NCBI RefSeq assembly: GCF_013201935.1
Contig: NZ_CP053833.1
Span: 1,240,001 to 1,304,000, forward strand
DNA from: Arcobacter cloacae
GTDB lineage: Bacteria; Campylobacterota; Campylobacteria; Campylobacterales; Arcobacteraceae
Direction: 5' to 3'
Length of the DNA: 64,000 nucleotides
Below are positions 5,896-54,461 of the stretch, piece by piece; position 1 is the stretch's first letter, and every line of letters begins with the position of its first letter. The notes under the pieces were generated by a model, which saw only the letters and a list, made by a program, of their open reading frames with translations, was not told the origin of the DNA and did no database searches. The position numbers and the translations under genes were made by a program.

Positions 5896-6879
5896 TTACG
5901 GCAACTGAGATTTAGCTTTAATTTTCTCTTCTAGATTAAGATTTGTTCTATTTATTCCATAATTTATTAAATCCAAATACTCAATATTTGTTGTTTTCAT
6001 TTTTGCTTCATTATACAAATTATTTGCAATTTGTAATTTCCCCAATGCTTCATAAATCAAAGCAAGATTGTAAATAACTTCAAAACTATTTTGGTTTAGC
6101 TCTTTATCTAAAATTTCAAGTTGCGTTTTTGCAATATCTAAATTTGTATTACTTATTAATTCAACAATATTTTCAAATCTTTTTCTTTGTTCTTTTGTAT
6201 AAGAAAGATTATTTTCATCAAGTTCCTCTATAATATTTATATTAAAATAGACATAGTGAGGAGAAATATCATCAATTATATCGTTTGCTATTTCATTTGC
6301 TATTTGTGAATTTACTCTATATTTTTCTGAAGATAAAACCATATTAAAAGGATATGGTCTATCAAAACATACATTATCAAAGCTAGATTTGTCATAGGTT
6401 TTTGAGAAAATTATTTTATTTGTTATTGGTTGTATTAATTGTACATTTGTAGTTACGTTATATTCTCTATTTTCACAAGGAATATATCTAATAGAATACT
6501 CTATACAATCTTTTTTTTTATGTTTTTCATCATATCTATAATATCTACATCTTGAATAGTCAATCTCTTCTTTATAGTATGTTTGAAAACTAACAGAAGA
6601 GTTTAAAACCTCTCCCGTTATTATGGCATCAACTCCAAAAATATCATTTTTTAGAGTAAATACTCTTTTGTTATCAACAATTTTATTTACAATTTTGTTT
6701 TCTAAACTTAGTGTTTGATTTACATCATCATTTCTAAATCTTTCAATTTTTACTACATTTATTTTCTCTTTTTCTATTTTTGAAGGATGAAGAGTTCTAA
6801 CAGTTAGTTTTTTTGAACTACAAGCTGTGAAAAAATGAGATAAAATAATTATTAAACCAATAGAAAATAAATTTTTCAT
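5896..6879 (-). CDS. outer-membrane-type lipoprotein with C-terminal TPR-like helices
   Basis: 327 residues. The signal peptide ends in a lipobox FFTAC with Cys20 as lipidation site. The middle part is strand-rich, with several cysteines in a tyrosine-rich segment (SRCRYYRYDEKHKKKDC). The last ~90 residues look like one or two TPR helix pairs (FEVIYNLALIYEALGKLQIA). I recognise no specific family; the architecture resembles lipoproteins of cell-envelope assembly systems. It is monocistronic and divergent from rraA. Confidence 0.7.
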   Translation of the reverse strand: MKNLFSIGLIIILSHFFTACSSKKLTVRTLHPSKIEKEKINVVKIERFRNDDVNQTLSLENKIVNKIVDNKRVFTLKNDIFGVDAIITGEVLNSSVSFQTYYKEEIDYSRCRYYRYDEKHKKKDCIEYSIRYIPCENREYNVTTNVQLIQPITNKIIFSKTYDKSSFDNVCFDRPYPFNMVLSSEKYRVNSQIANEIANDIIDDISPHYVYFNINIIEELDENNLSYTKEQRKRFENIVELISNTNLDIAKTQLEILDKELNQNSFEVIYNLALIYEALGKLQIANNLYNEAKMKTTNIEYLDLINYGINRTNLNLEEKIKAKSQLP

Positions 6880-7013
6880 ATATAACCTTTTTTTTATTGC
6901 AAAATTATAACTTATTTGTATAAATAAAGTGTAATATCTATTAAATAAGAAAATTTTAATAGTAAAATGGAATAATAATAGTATTTATTAAGATTTATAA
7001 TTAAGGATGATTT

Positions 7014-7493
7014 ATGGGATTTTTTACAGCTGATTTATGTGATAACTTTAGTGAAAAAACTGAAGTTTTAGGACCTAATTTTAAGTTTTATGGTGGAAAT
7101 AAAAAATTTAAAGGTGAAGTAATAACTGTTAAATTAGATAAAAATAATAAAGATTTAGCTGCTTTATTAAAAAACAATAATGGAGTTGGAAAAGTTGTTG
7201 TTGTTGATGTAAATATGAGATATTTTGCAGTTGTTGGTGATAACTTAATGAAATTTGCAAATGATAATAAATATGAAGGAATTATCGTAAATGGTTATGT
7301 AAGAGATACAATTACTACAAGAGAGTTTGATATAGGTTTAGTGGCTAAAGGGACTTGTCCTAGAAAATATATCCCTGTTCAAGATGGGCAAATTGGTGTT
7401 CCTTTAGTTATTGATGATGTAGAGATTAATTCAGGTGATTATATATATGTTGATATTGATGGAATAGTTGTTTGTAAAGAGAAGTTGGTTTAA
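7014..7493 (+). CDS. rraA: RraA family protein (RNase E regulator-like)
   Basis: 159 residues, the length of proteobacterial RraA. Family hallmarks are TADLCDNF at the N-terminus, KFYGGNKKF, and VNGYVRDT followed by LVAKGTCPRK. RraA binds RNase E and inhibits it in Escherichia coli; many relatives act instead as oxaloacetate decarboxylases or aldolases. Campylobacterota are usually considered to lack RNase E, so the RNA role is uncertain. It is the first gene of an apparent operon, two bases before the GGCT-like gene. Confidence 0.85.
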   Translation: MGFFTADLCDNFSEKTEVLGPNFKFYGGNKKFKGEVITVKLDKNNKDLAALLKNNNGVGKVVVVDVNMRYFAVVGDNLMKFANDNKYEGIIVNGYVRDTITTREFDIGLVAKGTCPRKYIPVQDGQIGVPLVIDDVEINSGDYIYVDIDGIVVCKEKLV

Positions 7494-7495
7494 TC

Positions 7496-8071
7496 ATGTA
7501 TTTATTTGGATTTGGTTCTTTAATAAATCTAGCTTCAGCTCAAAAATCTTTTAAAAGAGTTTTAACTCAAAATGATTTAATAAGTGTAAAGATAAAAGGT
7601 TATGAAAGAGTTTGGAATGCTGTTGAATCAATAGAGTTTGAAGATGGCATTGTAAATGGAGTTTTTTTGAATATACAGAAAAATGAAAATTCTATTTTAT
7701 ATGGTGTTGTTATAAAAATTACAGAAGAAGAGCTAGATGTTTTAAAACTTAGAGAAAAAAATTATAGTTGTATAACTATAAAAAAAGAGTCTATATTAAC
7801 AAAAAATATAGATGATGATTTAATTGCATTTATGACTACTAAAGAAGACAAATTAGCAAAAAAAGATGACAAAAATTCTTTTATTCCTTTAAAATATACC
7901 CAAATAGTAAAAAATGCTTTGGAAAATTATGATGAAGAGTTTAAAGAAAATTTTAAACAAATTTTTGAAAATTATCCATTTGCTTTAAAAGCTGGAGATT
8001 ATACTTTTACAGACCCAATACAAAATAAAGCAGCAAGAGAAGGAACAAAAAATTACAATGATTCAAAATAG
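7496..8071 (+). CDS. gamma-glutamylcyclotransferase-like protein
   Basis: 191 residues. The N-terminal YLFGFGSLIN matches the substrate-binding YGSL-type loop of the GGCT/AIG2 fold, and the KITEEELDVLKLREKNY region is also typical. Enzymes of this fold cyclise gamma-glutamyl amines to 5-oxoproline, as in glutathione turnover. The two-base gap after rraA and a 14-base overlap with the next gene indicate one transcript. Co-transcription with ovoA raises the possibility of a link to thiol metabolism, which is inference only. Confidence 0.7.
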   Translation: MYLFGFGSLINLASAQKSFKRVLTQNDLISVKIKGYERVWNAVESIEFEDGIVNGVFLNIQKNENSILYGVVIKITEEELDVLKLREKNYSCITIKKESILTKNIDDDLIAFMTTKEDKLAKKDDKNSFIPLKYTQIVKNALENYDEEFKENFKQIFENYPFALKAGDYTFTDPIQNKAAREGTKNYNDSK

Positions 8072-10277
8072 TTGTTATATTTATATATCTAAGTTATGTG
8101 ATTCTAAAAGAAAAACTATTGATGAAAGTTGCGTTATAAAAAAAAATGATGAACTTTTTATAACTTATTGCCAAAGTGATACTTTAGATAAATTTGAAGC
8201 AGATATAAATTTAGTAGCTGGAAATTCATCTTTTATTTATTTTTTTAAAAAGAAGTTTTTTTCAATTTTTATATCTATTCTTTCTGTATTAGTTATATTA
8301 ATGGCATTTTTATCAGTTTCTATATACGAAGATTTCTTAAAAAAAGTAGTTTTCGAAGCTCCATTTTCTTGGGAAACAAATGATTTTATTGCTTTGTTTT
8401 TTGTAATTTTATTCTTTTTAGGTGTTTTAATGATGCCTTCTATTTTAGAAGCTGAAGGAAATGAATTTAAAAATTTGATTTTTTCATGGTTTAATAAAGA
8501 TATCAGAAAATTAAGAAAATTAGAACTAACTTTATCTAATTTTGATAAAAAAACAAATATTCATTTGTATAATTTTGATTTAGAAAATTCAGAACATTGG
8601 CTTTGGAAGATATTTATAAGTAGAATTTTAAACAGATTTACAAATGTAAATTTTTATATTAGAAATGACAAACTTCAAAATGTAGTAAGAAGATTAAATA
8701 AATTTGATATTTTGGATATTGAAATAATAAAACCAGAAATTAGCTCTAAAAAGTATGATGTTGAAATTTTATTATCTTCAAAAGAACAAAAATTCTATCT
8801 TTTATTACAACTTTGCTCTACAATTTTATTAAAACAAAGAGATAAGAAAAATTTTATCTCTTTAGAACTTTTTGAGTATTGTGGTAAAAACTTTATAAAA
8901 GAGGAAACTGATTCAAAAAATCAATTGATTTTTGGTTTTCAAAACTTTATAAATCGAAGCTTTGATGATTTTAAATTTTTGGCTCAAGAAAAATCTTTAC
9001 AAATATTTTTTACTTCAAATGTTACATATAAAGATTTAAGTGATGAAGAAAGAAGAATTGCTTATTATTTGAGAAATCATATAGAAGAGTGTATTTCTAT
9101 ATTTGAAAATCCTATATCTCTTTTAATTTTATATTATTATGTAAAAGAGATAGTTTTAGACAAAAAAAGAACTATAAAAATTTTAGAAAAATTTATTAGT
9201 TCAACTAAAAATACGCAACAATATGAATTAATAAACTATTATTGGTTTGAAATAGCTGGATATATGTTTGATTTTAATGATGTAAATACTTTTGAAAGTT
9301 CGAATAATTCATATTATAGAAAATTATCAATAGAAGCTTTAAATAATTTAGCTTTTTTATTTGAAAGAAATGGTCATTTTGATCAAGCAATTTTATTAAA
9401 TCAATATTTATATGAAATAAATCCAAATAAGTATGCTTTAAATATCTGTTCTTTATATGAAAGAATGGGACAGTTTGAAAAAGCTTATGAAACTTTACCT
9501 AAAAAATTAAATTTAGGGAAAAATCAAAAGCCTTCAGATATTGAAATAAGATATTATCAAAGAAAAGCAGCTTGGATTATAATTAGTCAAAGAAATGAGA
9601 CTTTAAAACAAGAAGGAATTGAGTCTTTAGATAAATTAGAAGAACTTTTATTTTCTCATAATGACGAAAATGAACCCTTATGGTTGTGGCATTTTTATAA
9701 TATCAAAGCAAATCTTAATGAGTGGGATGAAAACTATGATGAAGCAATTATCTTTTATAAAAAATGTTTATCAATACCAACTTTAGGTGCTTTTGAATAT
9801 GGTGCAACTTTTGTAAATATGGCTATTTCTTATAGATGTAAATATGTCTTACAAAAAATTAAAGAAGAAAAAACAATAGATAAATCAATAAAACTTGGGC
9901 GACTTGGTATGATTTTAAAAGAATCAGTTGGAGACAGAGATGAAATGCCAGTTGTTTTACATAATTTTGCTTTAAATATTTTATATAAAATCTCAAATAA
10001 TATGGATATTACTCTTTGTAATGAAGTTTTAAAAGCTACAAATGAAGCTTTAGAGATATTAGAGAGAACTAAATCTATAAAAAGATTAGGAATGGTTCTA
10101 ATTGAAAATTATATAGTTAAATGTTTACTTAAAATAGATGCAAAAGATACGGTTATAAAATTGGGAAATCACATGAGACTTTTAGGGCAAAGTGAGTTGA
10201 ACCAACTATTAAATATATACAAAGAGTTTGAAAAAAACAATAAAATAAAAAAACTAGAATTTTTAGATAAATTTTGA
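8058..10277 (+). CDS. membrane-anchored TPR-type protein of unknown function
   Basis: 739 residues. Two hydrophobic segments (about residues 70-90 and 110-132) anchor the protein. A long soluble part follows: ~150-330 is mixed alpha/beta, and ~380-720 is helical with TPR-like repeats (RKLSIEALNNLAFLFERNG; NEWDENYDEAIIFYKKC). I recognise no family. The gene overlaps the GGCT-like gene by 14 bases and lies 22 bases before ovoA. It may be a scaffold or sensor for its operon partners, but nothing in the sequence proves this. Confidence 0.75.
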   Translation: MIQNSCYIYISKLCDSKRKTIDESCVIKKNDELFITYCQSDTLDKFEADINLVAGNSSFIYFFKKKFFSIFISILSVLVILMAFLSVSIYEDFLKKVVFEAPFSWETNDFIALFFVILFFLGVLMMPSILEAEGNEFKNLIFSWFNKDIRKLRKLELTLSNFDKKTNIHLYNFDLENSEHWLWKIFISRILNRFTNVNFYIRNDKLQNVVRRLNKFDILDIEIIKPEISSKKYDVEILLSSKEQKFYLLLQLCSTILLKQRDKKNFISLELFEYCGKNFIKEETDSKNQLIFGFQNFINRSFDDFKFLAQEKSLQIFFTSNVTYKDLSDEERRIAYYLRNHIEECISIFENPISLLILYYYVKEIVLDKKRTIKILEKFISSTKNTQQYELINYYWFEIAGYMFDFNDVNTFESSNNSYYRKLSIEALNNLAFLFERNGHFDQAILLNQYLYEINPNKYALNICSLYERMGQFEKAYETLPKKLNLGKNQKPSDIEIRYYQRKAAWIIISQRNETLKQEGIESLDKLEELLFSHNDENEPLWLWHFYNIKANLNEWDENYDEAIIFYKKCLSIPTLGAFEYGATFVNMAISYRCKYVLQKIKEEKTIDKSIKLGRLGMILKESVGDRDEMPVVLHNFALNILYKISNNMDITLCNEVLKATNEALEILERTKSIKRLGMVLIENYIVKCLLKIDAKDTVIKLGNHMRLLGQSELNQLLNIYKEFEKNNKIKKLEFLDKF

Positions 10278-10299
10278 ATAAGAGTATAAAAGGAGAAAA

Positions 10300-12393
10300 A
10301 TGAATTATATAAAAAATAGTGTAAATTTAAATACAGGTTCAATAGAAGAAAAAAGAGAAGAGATAAGAAAACAGTTTTTACAGACTTTTGAGTTAGATGA
10401 GAAACTATTTGATTTATTAAAAGAGAAAGATTTTATTTATGAACAACCAAATAGGTTAAGACATCCTTTGATTTTTTATTATGGACATACAGCTACATTT
10501 TTTATAAATAAATTGATTTTAGCAAATATAATAAAACAAAGAGTTAATCCTGAATTTGAATCAATATTTGCAATTGGTGTTGATGAAATGAGTTGGGATG
10601 ATTTAAATTCTGGAAACTATAAATGGCCAAAATTTGAAGAGATAAAAGATTATAGGCAAAAAGTTAAAAATATAGTTTTAGAGTTGATTAATAATATAGA
10701 GTTTACTATTCCTATAAATTGGGATTCTTCTATGTGGATAATTTTGATGGGAATTGAGCATGAAAATATTCATATAGAAACAAGTTCTGTTTTACTTAGA
10801 GAACTTGATATAAAATATTTAAGAAAAGATGAAATTTTTACGTATTCAAATGAATTTTCAAATGATTATCCAATAAATGAGTTAATAGATGTAAAAGGCG
10901 GAGATGTTATTTTACAAAAAGATAGAAAGAATCCTATTTTTTATGGTTGGGATAATGAATTTTCATATCATGCATCAAAAATAAATGATTTTAAAGCTTC
11001 TAAATATCTTGTTTCAAATGGAGAGTTTTTAGAGTTTGTAAAAGAAGATGGTTATAACAAACCTGAGTTTTTTTCAAAAGAGGGTAGAGAGTGGTTAGGT
11101 TATACTAATGCAAAACATCCAACTTTTTGGATAAAAGAGGATGAAAACTATTTTTTAAGAGAGATAAATAGAGTAGTTCCTCTTCCACTTAATTATCCTG
11201 TAGACGTGAATTTATATGAAGCAGAAGCATTTTGTAAATATAAAAGTCAAAAACTAGGAATTGAAGTTAGACTTCCAAGTGAAGATGAGTATTATAGACT
11301 TTATGATTTTGTAGATGCAGGAAACAAAGAGGCAAATATTGGTTTAATTCAGTTTAATCAATCGCCTGTAAATAAGTATAAATTTGATGAGTTTTATGAT
11401 GTTGTTGGAAATGTTTGGCAATGGAGTTTAACACCTATTTATCCTTTTGATGATTTTGTTCCTCATCCTATTTATGATGATTTTACAACTCCAACTTATG
11501 ATGATAGACACGCACTTATAAAAGGTGGCTCGTTTATTAGTTTAGGAAATGAAACTTTAAAAGAATCAAGATATGCTTTTAGAAAACACTTTTTTCAACA
11601 TGCAGGTTTTAGATATGTAAACTCTTCAAATGAGTATAGAACAAAATTAAATGATAATGTTTATGAAACTGATGAGTTAATTTCTCAATATTGTGAGTTT
11701 CATTATGGAAATGAAAATTTTGGAGTTAAGAATTTTTGTGTAAATTCTGTTGAGTTATTAGATCCATATTTAAAAAATATAAAAACTTCAAAAGCTTTAG
11801 ATTTAGGTTGTTCTGTTGGAAGGGCATCTTTTGAATTGGCTAAAACCTTTGATGAAGTATTAGGAATAGATTTTAGTGCTAACTTTATAAATGTGGGAGT
11901 AAAATTAAAAAATTATGACTCATTAATTTATAAAATCAAAAAAGAGGGTGAGTTATTTGAAGAAAAATCTGTTTCTTTAAAAGATTTAGGATTAGAGCAA
12001 ATTAAAAATAAAGTAAGCTTTATGCAAGGTGATGCTTGTAATTTAAAAGATATTTATAGTGGCTTTGATTTGATTTTTTGTTCAAATTTGATAGATAGAC
12101 TGTACTATCCTCAAAAATTCTTAGATGATATTCCTTTACGAATAAATAAAGATGGTTTATTGGTTTTATTAAGCCCATATACTTGGCTAGAAGATTATAC
12201 ACCAAAAGAGAACTGGCTTGGTGGATATATAAAAGATAATAAAGAGATTAGCACTTTAGATAGTTTAAAAAACAATTTATCATCTCAATTTGAATTACTT
12301 GATACAATAGATGTACCTTTTGTTATAAAAGAGACAGCAAGAAAATATCAACATACAATCTCACAAATGACTATTTGGAAGAAAAAAGATTAA
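10300..12393 (+). CDS. ovoA: OvoA: 5-histidylcysteine sulfoxide synthase with methyltransferase domain
   Basis: 697 residues. The N-terminal DinB-like domain carries the iron-binding motif HENIHIE (His154, His158), and His63 in FYYGH is a likely third ligand. A sulfatase-modifying-factor (FGE-like) domain spans ~190-440 (VVGNVWQWS, ALIKGGSFIS, HAGFRYV). The C-terminus from ~485 is a SAM methyltransferase (ALDLGCSVGRASF). This order is that of OvoA, which joins cysteine to histidine C5 oxidatively and N-methylates the product toward ovothiol A. The start has a good ribosome site (AAGGAG). OvoB, the PLP lyase, is not in the window. Confidence 0.92.
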   Translation: MNYIKNSVNLNTGSIEEKREEIRKQFLQTFELDEKLFDLLKEKDFIYEQPNRLRHPLIFYYGHTATFFINKLILANIIKQRVNPEFESIFAIGVDEMSWDDLNSGNYKWPKFEEIKDYRQKVKNIVLELINNIEFTIPINWDSSMWIILMGIEHENIHIETSSVLLRELDIKYLRKDEIFTYSNEFSNDYPINELIDVKGGDVILQKDRKNPIFYGWDNEFSYHASKINDFKASKYLVSNGEFLEFVKEDGYNKPEFFSKEGREWLGYTNAKHPTFWIKEDENYFLREINRVVPLPLNYPVDVNLYEAEAFCKYKSQKLGIEVRLPSEDEYYRLYDFVDAGNKEANIGLIQFNQSPVNKYKFDEFYDVVGNVWQWSLTPIYPFDDFVPHPIYDDFTTPTYDDRHALIKGGSFISLGNETLKESRYAFRKHFFQHAGFRYVNSSNEYRTKLNDNVYETDELISQYCEFHYGNENFGVKNFCVNSVELLDPYLKNIKTSKALDLGCSVGRASFELAKTFDEVLGIDFSANFINVGVKLKNYDSLIYKIKKEGELFEEKSVSLKDLGLEQIKNKVSFMQGDACNLKDIYSGFDLIFCSNLIDRLYYPQKFLDDIPLRINKDGLLVLLSPYTWLEDYTPKENWLGGYIKDNKEISTLDSLKNNLSSQFELLDTIDVPFVIKETARKYQHTISQMTIWKKKD

Positions 12394-12401
12394 ATATTAA
12401 C

Positions 12402-12444
12402 AAAATTATTGTACAAAAGCTTTAAGTTTTAGTACAATAATTTT
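12402..12444. terminator. ovoA terminator hairpin abutting the comEC start codon
   Basis: A perfect 13-bp inverted repeat (12402-12414 with 12432-12444) around a 17-base loop that contains AAGCTT, with T45 after the right arm. It can end ovoA transcription. Its right arm also contains TACAAT (12433-12438), a plausible -10 box seven bases before the comEC ATG at 12446. Confidence 0.65.
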
Positions 12445-12445
12445 T

Positions 12446-13684
12446 ATGATTATTAAAATTAAATTACAAAATAAAAAAATCTTAACAATTACTATTTTAA
12501 TTTTTCTTTTTTTAATAAATTTATCAATTGAATATGCTAAATATTTAGATTTAATCGATGAAGAGATTTATGAAACAAAAGTAGAAGTTTTAAATATTTA
12601 CAAAAAAGATAATTTTGATATTTTAAGAGTTAAAGCTGATAATTTTGATTTTTTTACAAATGTAAGTAAAAATGAAAATATAAAAAAATCAGATTTTTTA
12701 AATATTACTTTTATCTCAAGAAATATTAGTTTTTTAGATTATTTAAAAGGTTTTTATACAAAAACTTTATATTTTGATAGGATAAAAAAATCATATAGTT
12801 TCAAAGATAAAATTGTAGAGAAAATAGATTCAAATCATGAAAATGAGATGGTAAAAGAGTTATTTGGTGCTCTTTTTTTAGCAATTCCTATTTCAAAAGA
12901 GTTAAGGGATATTTGTACAAACTATGGAATTAGTCACTTAATAGCTTTAAGTGGTTTTCATTTAGTTGTTTTATCTTTTATTATTTATTGGATTTTTTAT
13001 TATCCATACTCTTTTTTTCATCAAAAATATTTTCCATATCGCAATAAAAAATATGATTTATTGATAATTACCATATTTTTACTCTTTTTTTATTTACTTT
13101 TAACAGGAATAATCCCTTCTTTATTAAGGGCATTTGTGATGTTTTGCTTAGGAATTTTTCTTTTACGTTCAAATATAAAAATATTTTCTTTTGAAACTTT
13201 ACTTTTTACTTTTTTAATTGTTATAGTTTTTTTCCCTAAATATTTATTTTCATTGGGTTTTTGGTTTTCAATTATGGCTGTTTTTTATATCTTTTTGTAT
13301 ATTAGATATTTTACTTTCAAAAATAAGATATTTCATCTTATTTTTTTTAATAGTTGGATGTTTTTTATTTTTAATCCAATAGTGCATTTTTATTTTCCTG
13401 CAACTTCATATGAACAATTTTTATCAATAATAATTACTATATTTTTCACAATTTTTTATCCATTTGAAATAGTTGCTCATATTTTTGATTTTGCAATATA
13501 TTTTGATGAGTATATTAGATATTTTTTAGAGTACAAAATGTATGTTTATGAAGTAAAAACACCCTTTTATTTTTTTATTATTTTTATAACTTTCTCTTTT
13601 TTATCAATATTTTATAAAAAGGCATTTTATATTTTGAATATTTTGATGATTTTATTTAATCTATTTTTGTATTTAAGATTTTAA
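12446..13684 (+). CDS. comEC: ComEC/Rec2-family competence channel, short form
   Basis: 412 residues with about eight membrane segments. The competence-domain signature GISHLIALSGFHL (~162-174) is present, followed by PSLLRAFVMF and LGFWFSIMAVFYI. ComEC carries single-stranded transforming DNA across the inner membrane. The C-terminal metallo-beta-lactamase nuclease domain of Bacillus ComEC is absent, as in other Campylobacterota of this length. No Shine-Dalgarno precedes the ATG, which sits directly after a hairpin. The 3' end overlaps the convergent exonuclease gene by 12 bases. Confidence 0.88.
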   Translation: MIIKIKLQNKKILTITILIFLFLINLSIEYAKYLDLIDEEIYETKVEVLNIYKKDNFDILRVKADNFDFFTNVSKNENIKKSDFLNITFISRNISFLDYLKGFYTKTLYFDRIKKSYSFKDKIVEKIDSNHENEMVKELFGALFLAIPISKELRDICTNYGISHLIALSGFHLVVLSFIIYWIFYYPYSFFHQKYFPYRNKKYDLLIITIFLLFFYLLLTGIIPSLLRAFVMFCLGIFLLRSNIKIFSFETLLFTFLIVIVFFPKYLFSLGFWFSIMAVFYIFLYIRYFTFKNKIFHLIFFNSWMFFIFNPIVHFYFPATSYEQFLSIIITIFFTIFYPFEIVAHIFDFAIYFDEYIRYFLEYKMYVYEVKTPFYFFIIFITFSFLSIFYKKAFYILNILMILFNLFLYLRF

Positions 13685-53858: not shown

Positions 53859-54461
53859 TCACTCATAAAAAGAATCTATATTTTTTTTGTGTCTATCTGC
53901 CCACTCTTCAAAACTTAAAGCAGACTCTTTTTTAACTTTTTCTTTACACTCTTGATATATCTCTTCAGCTTTTTCTTTTGGAATAACTGCAATTCCTTCC
54001 TCATCAGCAACTATTATATCGCCTGGATTTACATTTATTCCACCTGCAATTATTGGTGTGTTTACTGGAACAGCTTGTTTTTTTGTTCCTGGCATTGCTA
54101 AAACACCACGTCCAAACATTGGAATTCTTTTTTCTCTGATTTCTGCTATATCCCTTACTATACCATCAATCACAAAACCTACAATTCCTCTGTTATATGC
54201 AATAGTGGCTACATTTCCACCAATTACTGCATAATCCATTGTATTTGATTGAGCTACGATTATAGAACCAACTGGCGCTTCATAAATAGCTCTGTGAAGT
54301 GCTAAATTTTCTCCTGCAACCATATTTACAGTAAATGCAGGACCTGAGATTCTAGGAATATTTGACCAAAGCTCTTTTATTCCAGCATCCATAAAATTTT
54401 CTCTTTTTAAAGTTCCTGCATAATCACAAGGTGAAATTTCACTAAATTTTTTATAATCCAC
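53859..54461 (-). CDS. RraA-family aldolase/decarboxylase-like protein
   Basis: 200 residues, longer than the rraA at 7014. NMVAGENLALHRAIYEAPVG, the metal-site region VIGGNVATIAYNRG and FVIDGIVRDIAEIRE match the HMG/CHA aldolase branch (pyruvate aldolase or oxaloacetate decarboxylase). The C-terminal helical tail DIIVADEEGIAVIPKEKAEE is also typical. The substrate is unknown. It is monocistronic. Confidence 0.82.
   Translation of the reverse strand: MDYKKFSEISPCDYAGTLKRENFMDAGIKELWSNIPRISGPAFTVNMVAGENLALHRAIYEAPVGSIIVAQSNTMDYAVIGGNVATIAYNRGIVGFVIDGIVRDIAEIREKRIPMFGRGVLAMPGTKKQAVPVNTPIIAGGINVNPGDIIVADEEGIAVIPKEKAEEIYQECKEKVKKESALSFEEWADRHKKNIDSFYE

What the first reader, a model, noticed from the sequence alone, without database searches (positions are those of the whole stretch)
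7014..12393. Ovothiol synthase in an operon with RraA, a GGCT-fold protein and an unknown membrane TPR protein
Gaps are 2, -14 and 22 bases, so the four genes look like one transcript. OvoA makes the redox thiol precursor; a GGCT-type enzyme and a 739-residue membrane TPR protein could process, export or sense the thiol. I know of no described role for such partners in ovothiol biology.
Basis: partly seen in the sequence, partly recalled or inferred. Interest (0 to 1): 0.6.

Follow-up and report, generated by a model that had tools for sequence, protein, structure and literature searches.

The report
Ovothiol gene beside separate GGCT–TPR pair
Four neighbouring genes in an Arcobacter-type bacterium do lie together as if in one transcript and are kept together in many relatives, but two of them (a GGCT-type enzyme and a membrane helper protein) also travel as their own pair with or without the ovothiol gene, so they are probably not dedicated ovothiol partners.

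Summary
In detail: rraA, ggct, tpr and ovoA lie head to tail with gaps of 2, -14 and 22 bases. OvoA is a complete sulfoxide synthase plus methyltransferase. The GGCT fold is supported by a confident model (pLDDT 91; Z 13.6 to human GGCT). The order rraA-ggct-tpr-ovoA recurs in 37 of 104 family genomes, 24 of them outside the window's genus.

The partner reading is only partly supported. ggct-tpr behaves as an autonomous two-gene module: present without ovoA in 9 of 104 genomes, on another contig than ovoA in 3, and in 2 of 48 genomes of another family without ovoA or rraA beside it. No pair was found in 33 of 79 ovoA genomes, and its presence changes at least 9 times on the OvoA tree. Pair and ovoA are barely associated (p 0.067). 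Only the locus rraA tracks ovoA (50 of 50), and in two genomes it stands beside comEC with ovoA elsewhere.

Best reading: independent modules sharing one locus between rraA and comEC; GGCT–TPR is a probably membrane-tethered gamma-glutamyl-cleaving unit, substrate unknown.

The parts
6880..7013 (.). 134-base gap between the divergent lipoprotein-like gene (5896-6879, -) and rraA; the likely promoter region of the cluster (inferred)
   Evidence: sigma-70-type matches in the region are not above shuffles (53 found, 68.8 expected), so no promoter is claimed
7014..7493 (+). rraA: RraA/HMG-aldolase family protein, 159 aa, with the metal-site pattern D76-X20-R97-D98
   Evidence: locus clade separate from the family's other rraA copies (98/91)
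7496..8071 (+). ggct: GGCT-fold protein, 191 aa; FGFGSL loop at residues 4-9 and invariant Glu87 (codon 7754-7756)
8058..10277 (+). tpr: 739-aa protein with two hydrophobic helices near the N-terminus, a middle alpha/beta region of low model confidence and a C-terminal TPR-like solenoid; overlaps ggct by 14 bases
8241..8342 (+). first hydrophobic stretch of tpr (19-residue windows starting at residues 62-77 score 1.6 or more)
8370..8459 (+). second hydrophobic stretch of tpr (windows starting at residues 105-116)
10300..12393 (+). ovoA: bifunctional 5-histidylcysteine sulfoxide synthase and thiohistidine N-methyltransferase; HENIHIE (HX3HXE) at 10759-10779, methyltransferase motif DLGCSVGR at 11800-11823
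12402..12445 (+). AT-rich inverted repeat (stem of 13 pairs around an inner stem) followed by a T run: likely transcript end after ovoA
   Evidence: MFE -16.0 kcal/mol, z -5.87, 0 of 200 shuffles as good
12446..13684 (+). comEC-like gene, 412 aa (Competence domain only): the conserved downstream neighbour of the locus

Best explanation
The four genes are very likely one transcription unit, but they are not one pathway. They are independent modules that share a conserved spot between rraA and comEC. Module 1 is ovoA, which makes the sulfoxide from histidine and cysteine and methylates 5-thiohistidine (shown for the family; sequence and motif tested here). Module 2 is ggct-tpr, two genes inherited together: a catalytically competent-looking GGCT-fold enzyme that would release 5-oxoproline and a free amine from a gamma-glutamyl amide (fold and conserved Glu shown, activity inferred), held at the inner membrane by a co-translated TPR protein with two N-terminal helices (helices predicted; binding and topology inferred). 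Its substrate is unlikely to be glutathione made by the cell, since the window's genome has no GshB-type synthase. Module 3 is rraA, which keeps an aldolase-type metal motif and so is more likely a small 2-oxo-acid (pyruvate-type) aldolase or decarboxylase than an RNase E regulator; its tie to ovoA is mainly positional, though a supporting role is not excluded.
For: Order kept in 37 of 104 genomes over nine genera, while in 20 fetched loci of 12 kb or more outside the genus none holds the window's genes upstream of the lipoprotein gene or downstream of comEC that were tested. ggct and tpr adjacent in 52 of 52 genomes with an orthologous ggct; the 3 tpr without ggct (G012, G018, G095) lie at contig edges. 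The pair without ovoA in 9 of 104 genomes, with comEC still within 2.2 kb downstream in 8 of 9; on other contigs than ovoA in 3; in 2 of 48 genomes of another family, G289 next to tonB-exbD-exbB-like genes and G253 in an nrdB-ggct-tpr-nitrilase-pcm array. Pair not found in 33 of 79 ovoA genomes; presence needs 12 changes, at least 9 forced by supported branches, on a 61-row OvoA tree. rraA directly before comEC with ovoA elsewhere in G084 and G085. GGCT fold Z 13.6 to human GGCT and 11.7 to ChaC2; FGFGSL/FGYGSL and REK in 27 of 27 rows. No GshB: 17 of 104 genomes have a match of 170 bits or more, the window's genome has one of 74 bits, which is a RimK-like gene. D or E at the motif place in all 60 distinct RraA rows; E. 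coli RraA has A and RQ there; no RNase E/G in the genome.
Against: When the pair and ovoA are both present and on one contig they are side by side in 43 of 43 genomes (one with a gene between), and the pair never stands at this locus in another order, which fits a working link in some lineages. Locus rraA occurs with ovoA in 50 of 50 genomes. The pair-without-ovoA genomes of the family all belong to the window's genus, so they may be few events. Many of the 33 ovoA genomes without the pair are drafts or carry a divergent OvoA. No activity, topology, binding or transcript was measured. The sequence link of GGCT to ChaC is weak (hhalign probability 23%).
Confidence: 0.7

Rival explanations
1. 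Dedicated ovothiol operon: GGCT frees cysteine from gamma-glutamylcysteine (or trims a gamma-glutamyl thiohistidine conjugate), TPR tethers or senses, and RraA removes the pyruvate-type by-product of the beta-lyase step.
For: Same order in 37 of 104 genomes; locus rraA only in ovoA genomes (50 of 50; Fisher p 2.4e-9, not corrected for kinship); adjacent whenever pair and ovoA are on one contig.
Against: Pair without ovoA in 9 of 104 and beyond the family in 2 of 48; 33 of 79 ovoA genomes without the pair found; pair-ovoA association p 0.067. In the 1.5 kb on each side of seven OvoA loci outside the family no rraA, ggct or tpr was found. rraA is missing beside ovoA in G003, G016 and G078.
Confidence: 0.15
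2. Only RraA is an ovothiol-linked enzyme (for example acting on the 2-oxo acid left by the OvoB-type lyase); GGCT-TPR is a passenger between rraA and ovoA.
For: rraA stays next to ovoA when the pair is absent (11 genomes, 7 with 65-136 bases between and 4 with about 1.2 kb that in the locus read, L108, holds an ADP-ribosylglycohydrolase-family gene); rraA absent from its locus in 9 of 9 pair-only genomes; a separate clade from other copies.
Against: G084 and G085 carry rraA of this clade's sister group directly before comEC with a divergent ovoA on another contig; ovoA persists without locus rraA in 29 of 79 genomes.
Confidence: 0.12
3. The conserved order is nothing but general synteny of the family.
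For: Within the window's genus the flanking genes are also kept in order (L127-L135).
Against: Outside the genus none of 20 loci of 12 kb or more keeps the tested genes beyond the lipoprotein gene and comEC, while the cluster is kept.
Confidence: 0.03

Closest known systems
OvoA, bifunctional ovothiol synthase (TIGR04344 + TIGR04345; PDB 8khq)
   Same: Both domains over their cut-offs, full-length match, HX3HXE motif.
   Different: Nothing tested differs; only the neighbourhood is lineage-specific.
GGCT / ChaC gamma-glutamylcyclotransferases (PDB 3cry, 6ky0, 2qik)
   Same: Predicted fold over residues 1-182 (Z 13.6, 11.7, 13.1), FG(F/Y)GSL loop, invariant Glu in a place that matches ChaC Glu in a weak profile alignment.
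   Different: Below Pfam and NCBIfam cut-offs; always paired with a membrane TPR protein; host lacks a GshB-type synthase.
RraA / HMG-CHA aldolase family (PF03737)
   Same: Full-length match, D-X20-R-D pattern.
   Different: Second copy specific to this locus; host has no RNase E/G.
5-thiohistidine N-acetyltransferase beside ovoA in Bacteroidota (PMC12631010, parts 1 and 2 of 3 read)
   Same: A gene co-encoded with ovoA; same neighbourhood reasoning, including setting aside partners that occur in genomes without OvoA.
   Different: There the enzyme was found beside ovoA in over 50 genomes and shown to act on 5-thiohistidine; here the pair fails that test and nothing was assayed.

Membership tests
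OvoA | sulfoxide synthase domain over the curated cut-off | tested here: met
   TIGR04344 630.5 bits, cut-off 400
OvoA | C-terminal thiohistidine N-methyltransferase domain | tested here: met
   TIGR04345 334.3 bits, cut-off 170
OvoA | HX3HXE iron-binding motif (motif recalled) | tested here: met
   HENIHIE at residues 154-160; a motif of this form in 61 of 61 OvoA rows
OvoA | makes 5-histidylcysteine sulfoxide / ovothiol | not testable with these tools
   -
GGCT/ChaC | GGCT fold | tested here: met
   model pLDDT 91.4; Foldseek E 9.8e-06; Z 13.6
GGCT/ChaC | catalytic Glu | tested here: inconclusive
   Glu87 invariant in 27 of 27 rows and RE kept in both distant homologues; placed on ChaC Glu by hhalign at probability 23% only
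GGCT/ChaC | curated family score (ChaC PF04752) | tested here: not met
   15.6 bits, cut-off 21; so it is called GGCT-fold, not a ChaC
GGCT/ChaC | releases 5-oxoproline | not testable with these tools
   -
RraA as RNase E regulator | host has an RNase E/G to regulate | tested here: not met
   PF10150: 0 of 1 (own genome); 6 of 14 control genomes positive
HMG/CHA-type aldolase | metal and catalytic motif D-X20-R-D (exact form recalled; PMC5065237 passages speak of two motifs) | tested here: met
   D76, R97, D98; E. coli RraA has A and RQ
HMG/CHA-type aldolase | aldolase or oxaloacetate decarboxylase activity | not testable with these tools
   -
TPR protein | TPR repeats | tested here: inconclusive
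   five TPR models hit, none over its cut-off; designed CTPR E 1.3e-05 by profile; Foldseek TPR chains
Ovothiol-dedicated operon | neighbours absent from genomes without ovoA | tested here: not met
   ggct-tpr in 9 of 25 family genomes without ovoA; rraA of the locus type in 0 of 25

The most novel reading that the evidence does not exclude
GGCT-TPR is a new kind of membrane-bound gamma-glutamyl cyclotransferase complex of Campylobacterota; in the lineages where it is fused into the ovoA transcript it has been recruited to free cysteine for OvoA or to recycle gamma-glutamyl thiohistidine conjugates, with the locus RraA clearing the 2-oxo acid left by the lyase step.
Probability: 0.15. Interest if true: 0.7.

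Novelty: new variant of a known kind. Interest (0 to 1): 0.38.

Why it matters
Very few proteins that use or make 5-thiohistidines beyond OvoA are known (stated in PMC12631010), so ovoA neighbours are a natural hunting ground. This survey shows that conserved adjacency alone misleads here: the closest neighbours form a separate module, and only rraA is worth testing first. It also brings out a small two-gene family, a GGCT-fold enzyme with its own membrane TPR partner, for which no curated family of its own turned up in the libraries searched and whose substrate in bacteria without GshB is an open, testable question.

Tried and rejected
RNase E regulation by RraA: set aside because the genome has no RNase E/G match and the aldolase-type motif is kept. 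Glutathione breakdown as the plain role of GGCT: made unlikely by the lack of a GshB-type match in the window's genome and in 41 of the 55 tpr genomes (17 of 104 genomes have a match of 170 bits or more, 14 of them with tpr); GshA and GshF were not searched. Defence system: no PADLOC match for GGCT or TPR. Mobile element: TPR has no match in 72,556 plasmid or 50,697 phage records. STAND-type ATPase: Foldseek's top row for TPR is a STAND protein with TPRs, but TM is 0.27 to 0.30 and no Walker A pattern occurs in 24 of 24 rows. Wider spread: the genome-contig scan gave 21 loci whose titles name Arcobacter, Aliarcobacter, Malaciobacter, Poseidonibacter, uncultured Campylobacterales or just 'bacterium'; it is pattern-based and missed most genomes already known, so it is no proof of absence. 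In the phylum sample 28 of 397 genomes matched (26 in the family), 29 with the wider profile, the extra one a 17.8-bit partial match that I discounted. ovoB was not located; PMC12631010 calls it a broad-specificity beta-lyase, and no search for one was made.

Rows dropped before counts: 5 genomes with only weak GGCT matches under 35 bits, 2 with an 18-bit TPR match, 20 of 70 genomes whose best RraA match was under 173 bits (18 such rows, including second copies, went into the tree and fell outside the locus clade). All 79 OvoA genomes were counted, though several have a broken or methyltransferase-less OvoA. The OvoA tree used 59 of the 79 plus 2 from another family; the 20 left out were divergent, fragmentary or of unlinked contigs. 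Fisher tests are not corrected for kinship.
Full report
Observation. The four ORFs are at the stated coordinates with gaps of 2, -14 and 22 bases. OvoA passes both OvoA domain models (630.5 and 334.3 bits), matches solved OvoA 8khq over residues 15-695 and has HENIHIE at residues 154-160. RraA passes PF03737 and NF006875 by 1.1 bits. The GGCT protein is below the ChaC cut-off, but its model (pLDDT 91.4) matches human GGCT at Z 13.6, YkqA at 13.1 and ChaC2 at 11.7. The TPR protein (model pLDDT 76.9, low in residues 57-73, 125-144 and others) has two hydrophobic stretches near the N-terminus in 24 of 24 orthologues and a TPR-like C-terminal half.

Transcription. Ends of the unit are inferred only. 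A 13-pair AT-rich stem with a T run follows ovoA (12402-12445; MFE -16.0, shuffles -4.4, z -5.9). Hairpins of different sequence follow ovoA in several relatives (for example L013, L024, L029, L107) and none as strong was seen in others (for example L003, L006, L023, not counted). The promoter scan gave fewer matches than shuffles and is no evidence.

Conservation. In 104 genomes of the family OvoA was found in 79, TPR orthologues in 55 (57 less 2 weak), GGCT orthologues in 52 (57 less 5 weak), locus-type RraA in 50. By pattern: all four in 37; rraA and ovoA in 13; ggct, tpr and ovoA in 6; tpr and ovoA at contig edges in 3; ggct and tpr in 9; ovoA alone in 20; none in the other 16. Of the 37, 13 are in the window's genus and 24 in eight other genera. 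Outside the genus the flanks are scrambled: in 20 loci of 12 kb or more (19 genomes) none of the tested window genes upstream of the lipoprotein gene or downstream of comEC was found; the lipoprotein gene was in 9 of 20 and comEC in 17 of 20. So the array is kept by more than general synteny. These loci are 12-16 kb long, so only near genes could have been seen.

The pair is separable. In 8 of the 9 comEC still lies 1 to 2184 bases downstream of tpr, and in G005 it is far away: ovoA and rraA are gone from both sides of a kept pair. In G076, G086 and G087 pair and ovoA are on different contigs. In another family of the order 2 of 48 genomes of one genus hold the pair: G289 beside tonB-exbD-exbB-like genes, G253 (26-28% identical TPR) in an array nrdB-like, ggct, tpr, carbon-nitrogen hydrolase, PCMT. 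Neither stretch holds an rraA; in OvoA searches G253 gave only a 19.8-bit methyltransferase-region match and G289 is not among the matches. Conversely 33 of 79 ovoA genomes gave no pair (some are drafts). Fisher: TPR with OvoA p 0.067, locus RraA with OvoA p 2.4e-9. On a tree of 61 OvoA rows the presence of the pair changes 12 times, at least 9 by supported branches.

Against this reading: in the genomes that hold pair and ovoA on one contig, tpr always lies just before ovoA (43 of 43, with gaps of 4-210 bases except G032, where an ADP-ribosylglycohydrolase-family gene lies between). This is what a shared promoter, a recent functional tie, or a fixed insertion site would each give.

RraA. The locus copies form one clade of 40 rows (98/91), apart from 18 other copies. 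G084 and G085 carry the sister group directly before comEC (about 100-115 bases), with a divergent ovoA on another contig. So rraA-comEC may be the older frame into which ovoA and the pair came, or ovoA may have left. All 60 distinct RraA rows have D or E 21 residues before RD, where E. coli RraA has A and RQ; PMC5065237 (passages) says that most homologues keep one of two aldolase motifs. The genome has no RNase E/G match.

GGCT-TPR mechanism. FG(F/Y)GSL and REK are in 27 of 27 rows, and RE in the two distant homologues. The reading frames overlap in the window (14 bases), in G289 (56) and G253 (4), which suggests coupled synthesis. The window's genome has only a RimK-like match to the GshB domain. 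I infer a membrane-held enzyme that splits gamma-glutamyl amides taken up or made by the cell. None of this was assayed.

Literature. PMC12631010 (parts 1 and 2 of 3) used the same approach and set aside ovoA neighbours that also occur without OvoA. No held paper has both 'ovothiol' and 'arcobacter', 'ovothiol' and 'gene neighborhood', or 'gamma-glutamylcyclotransferase', 'tetratricopeptide' and 'operon'; the library holds open-licence papers only, so this is no proof of novelty.

Verdict. A real, conserved gene array; the ovothiol-partner idea is weakened for GGCT and TPR and left open for RraA.

Noticed in passing
L172 4928-10023 (G253): A distant ggct-tpr pair in an array with an nrdB-like gene, a carbon-nitrogen hydrolase and PCMT (isoaspartyl methyltransferase), which hints at peptide or metabolite repair.
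   Followed up: partly
L171 6555-10992 (G289): ggct-tpr alone beside tonB-exbD-exbB-like genes, with a feoB-like and a DUF4198 gene on the other side.
   Followed up: partly
L108 7826-8896; L107 10402-11472: An ADP-ribosylglycohydrolase-family gene sits directly before ovoA in these genomes; G033, G067 and G068 have a gap of the same size.
   Followed up: partly
L108 9460-10503: A low-specificity threonine aldolase / beta-eliminating-lyase-family PLP gene just before rraA; a possible but untested lyase candidate.
   Followed up: no
window 12402-12445: Strong AT-rich hairpin between ovoA and comEC, reaching up to the comEC start codon.
   Followed up: partly
window 12446-13684: The comEC-like protein has the Competence domain only; no other Pfam domain was found.
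   Followed up: partly
window 53970-54281 (-): A third, distant RraA-like stretch (41.6 bits, inside a 203-aa open frame) in the same window.
   Followed up: no
G000:C1 2435812-2438234 (L173 3803-6235, -): RimK-like glutamate ligase with neighbouring aspartyl-protease-like and succinylglutamate-desuccinylase-like genes (names from reading the translations).
   Followed up: no
G043, G045, G048, G049, G084, G085, G102 and others: Divergent OvoA about 620-660 aa long whose methyltransferase part matches only in pieces.
   Followed up: no
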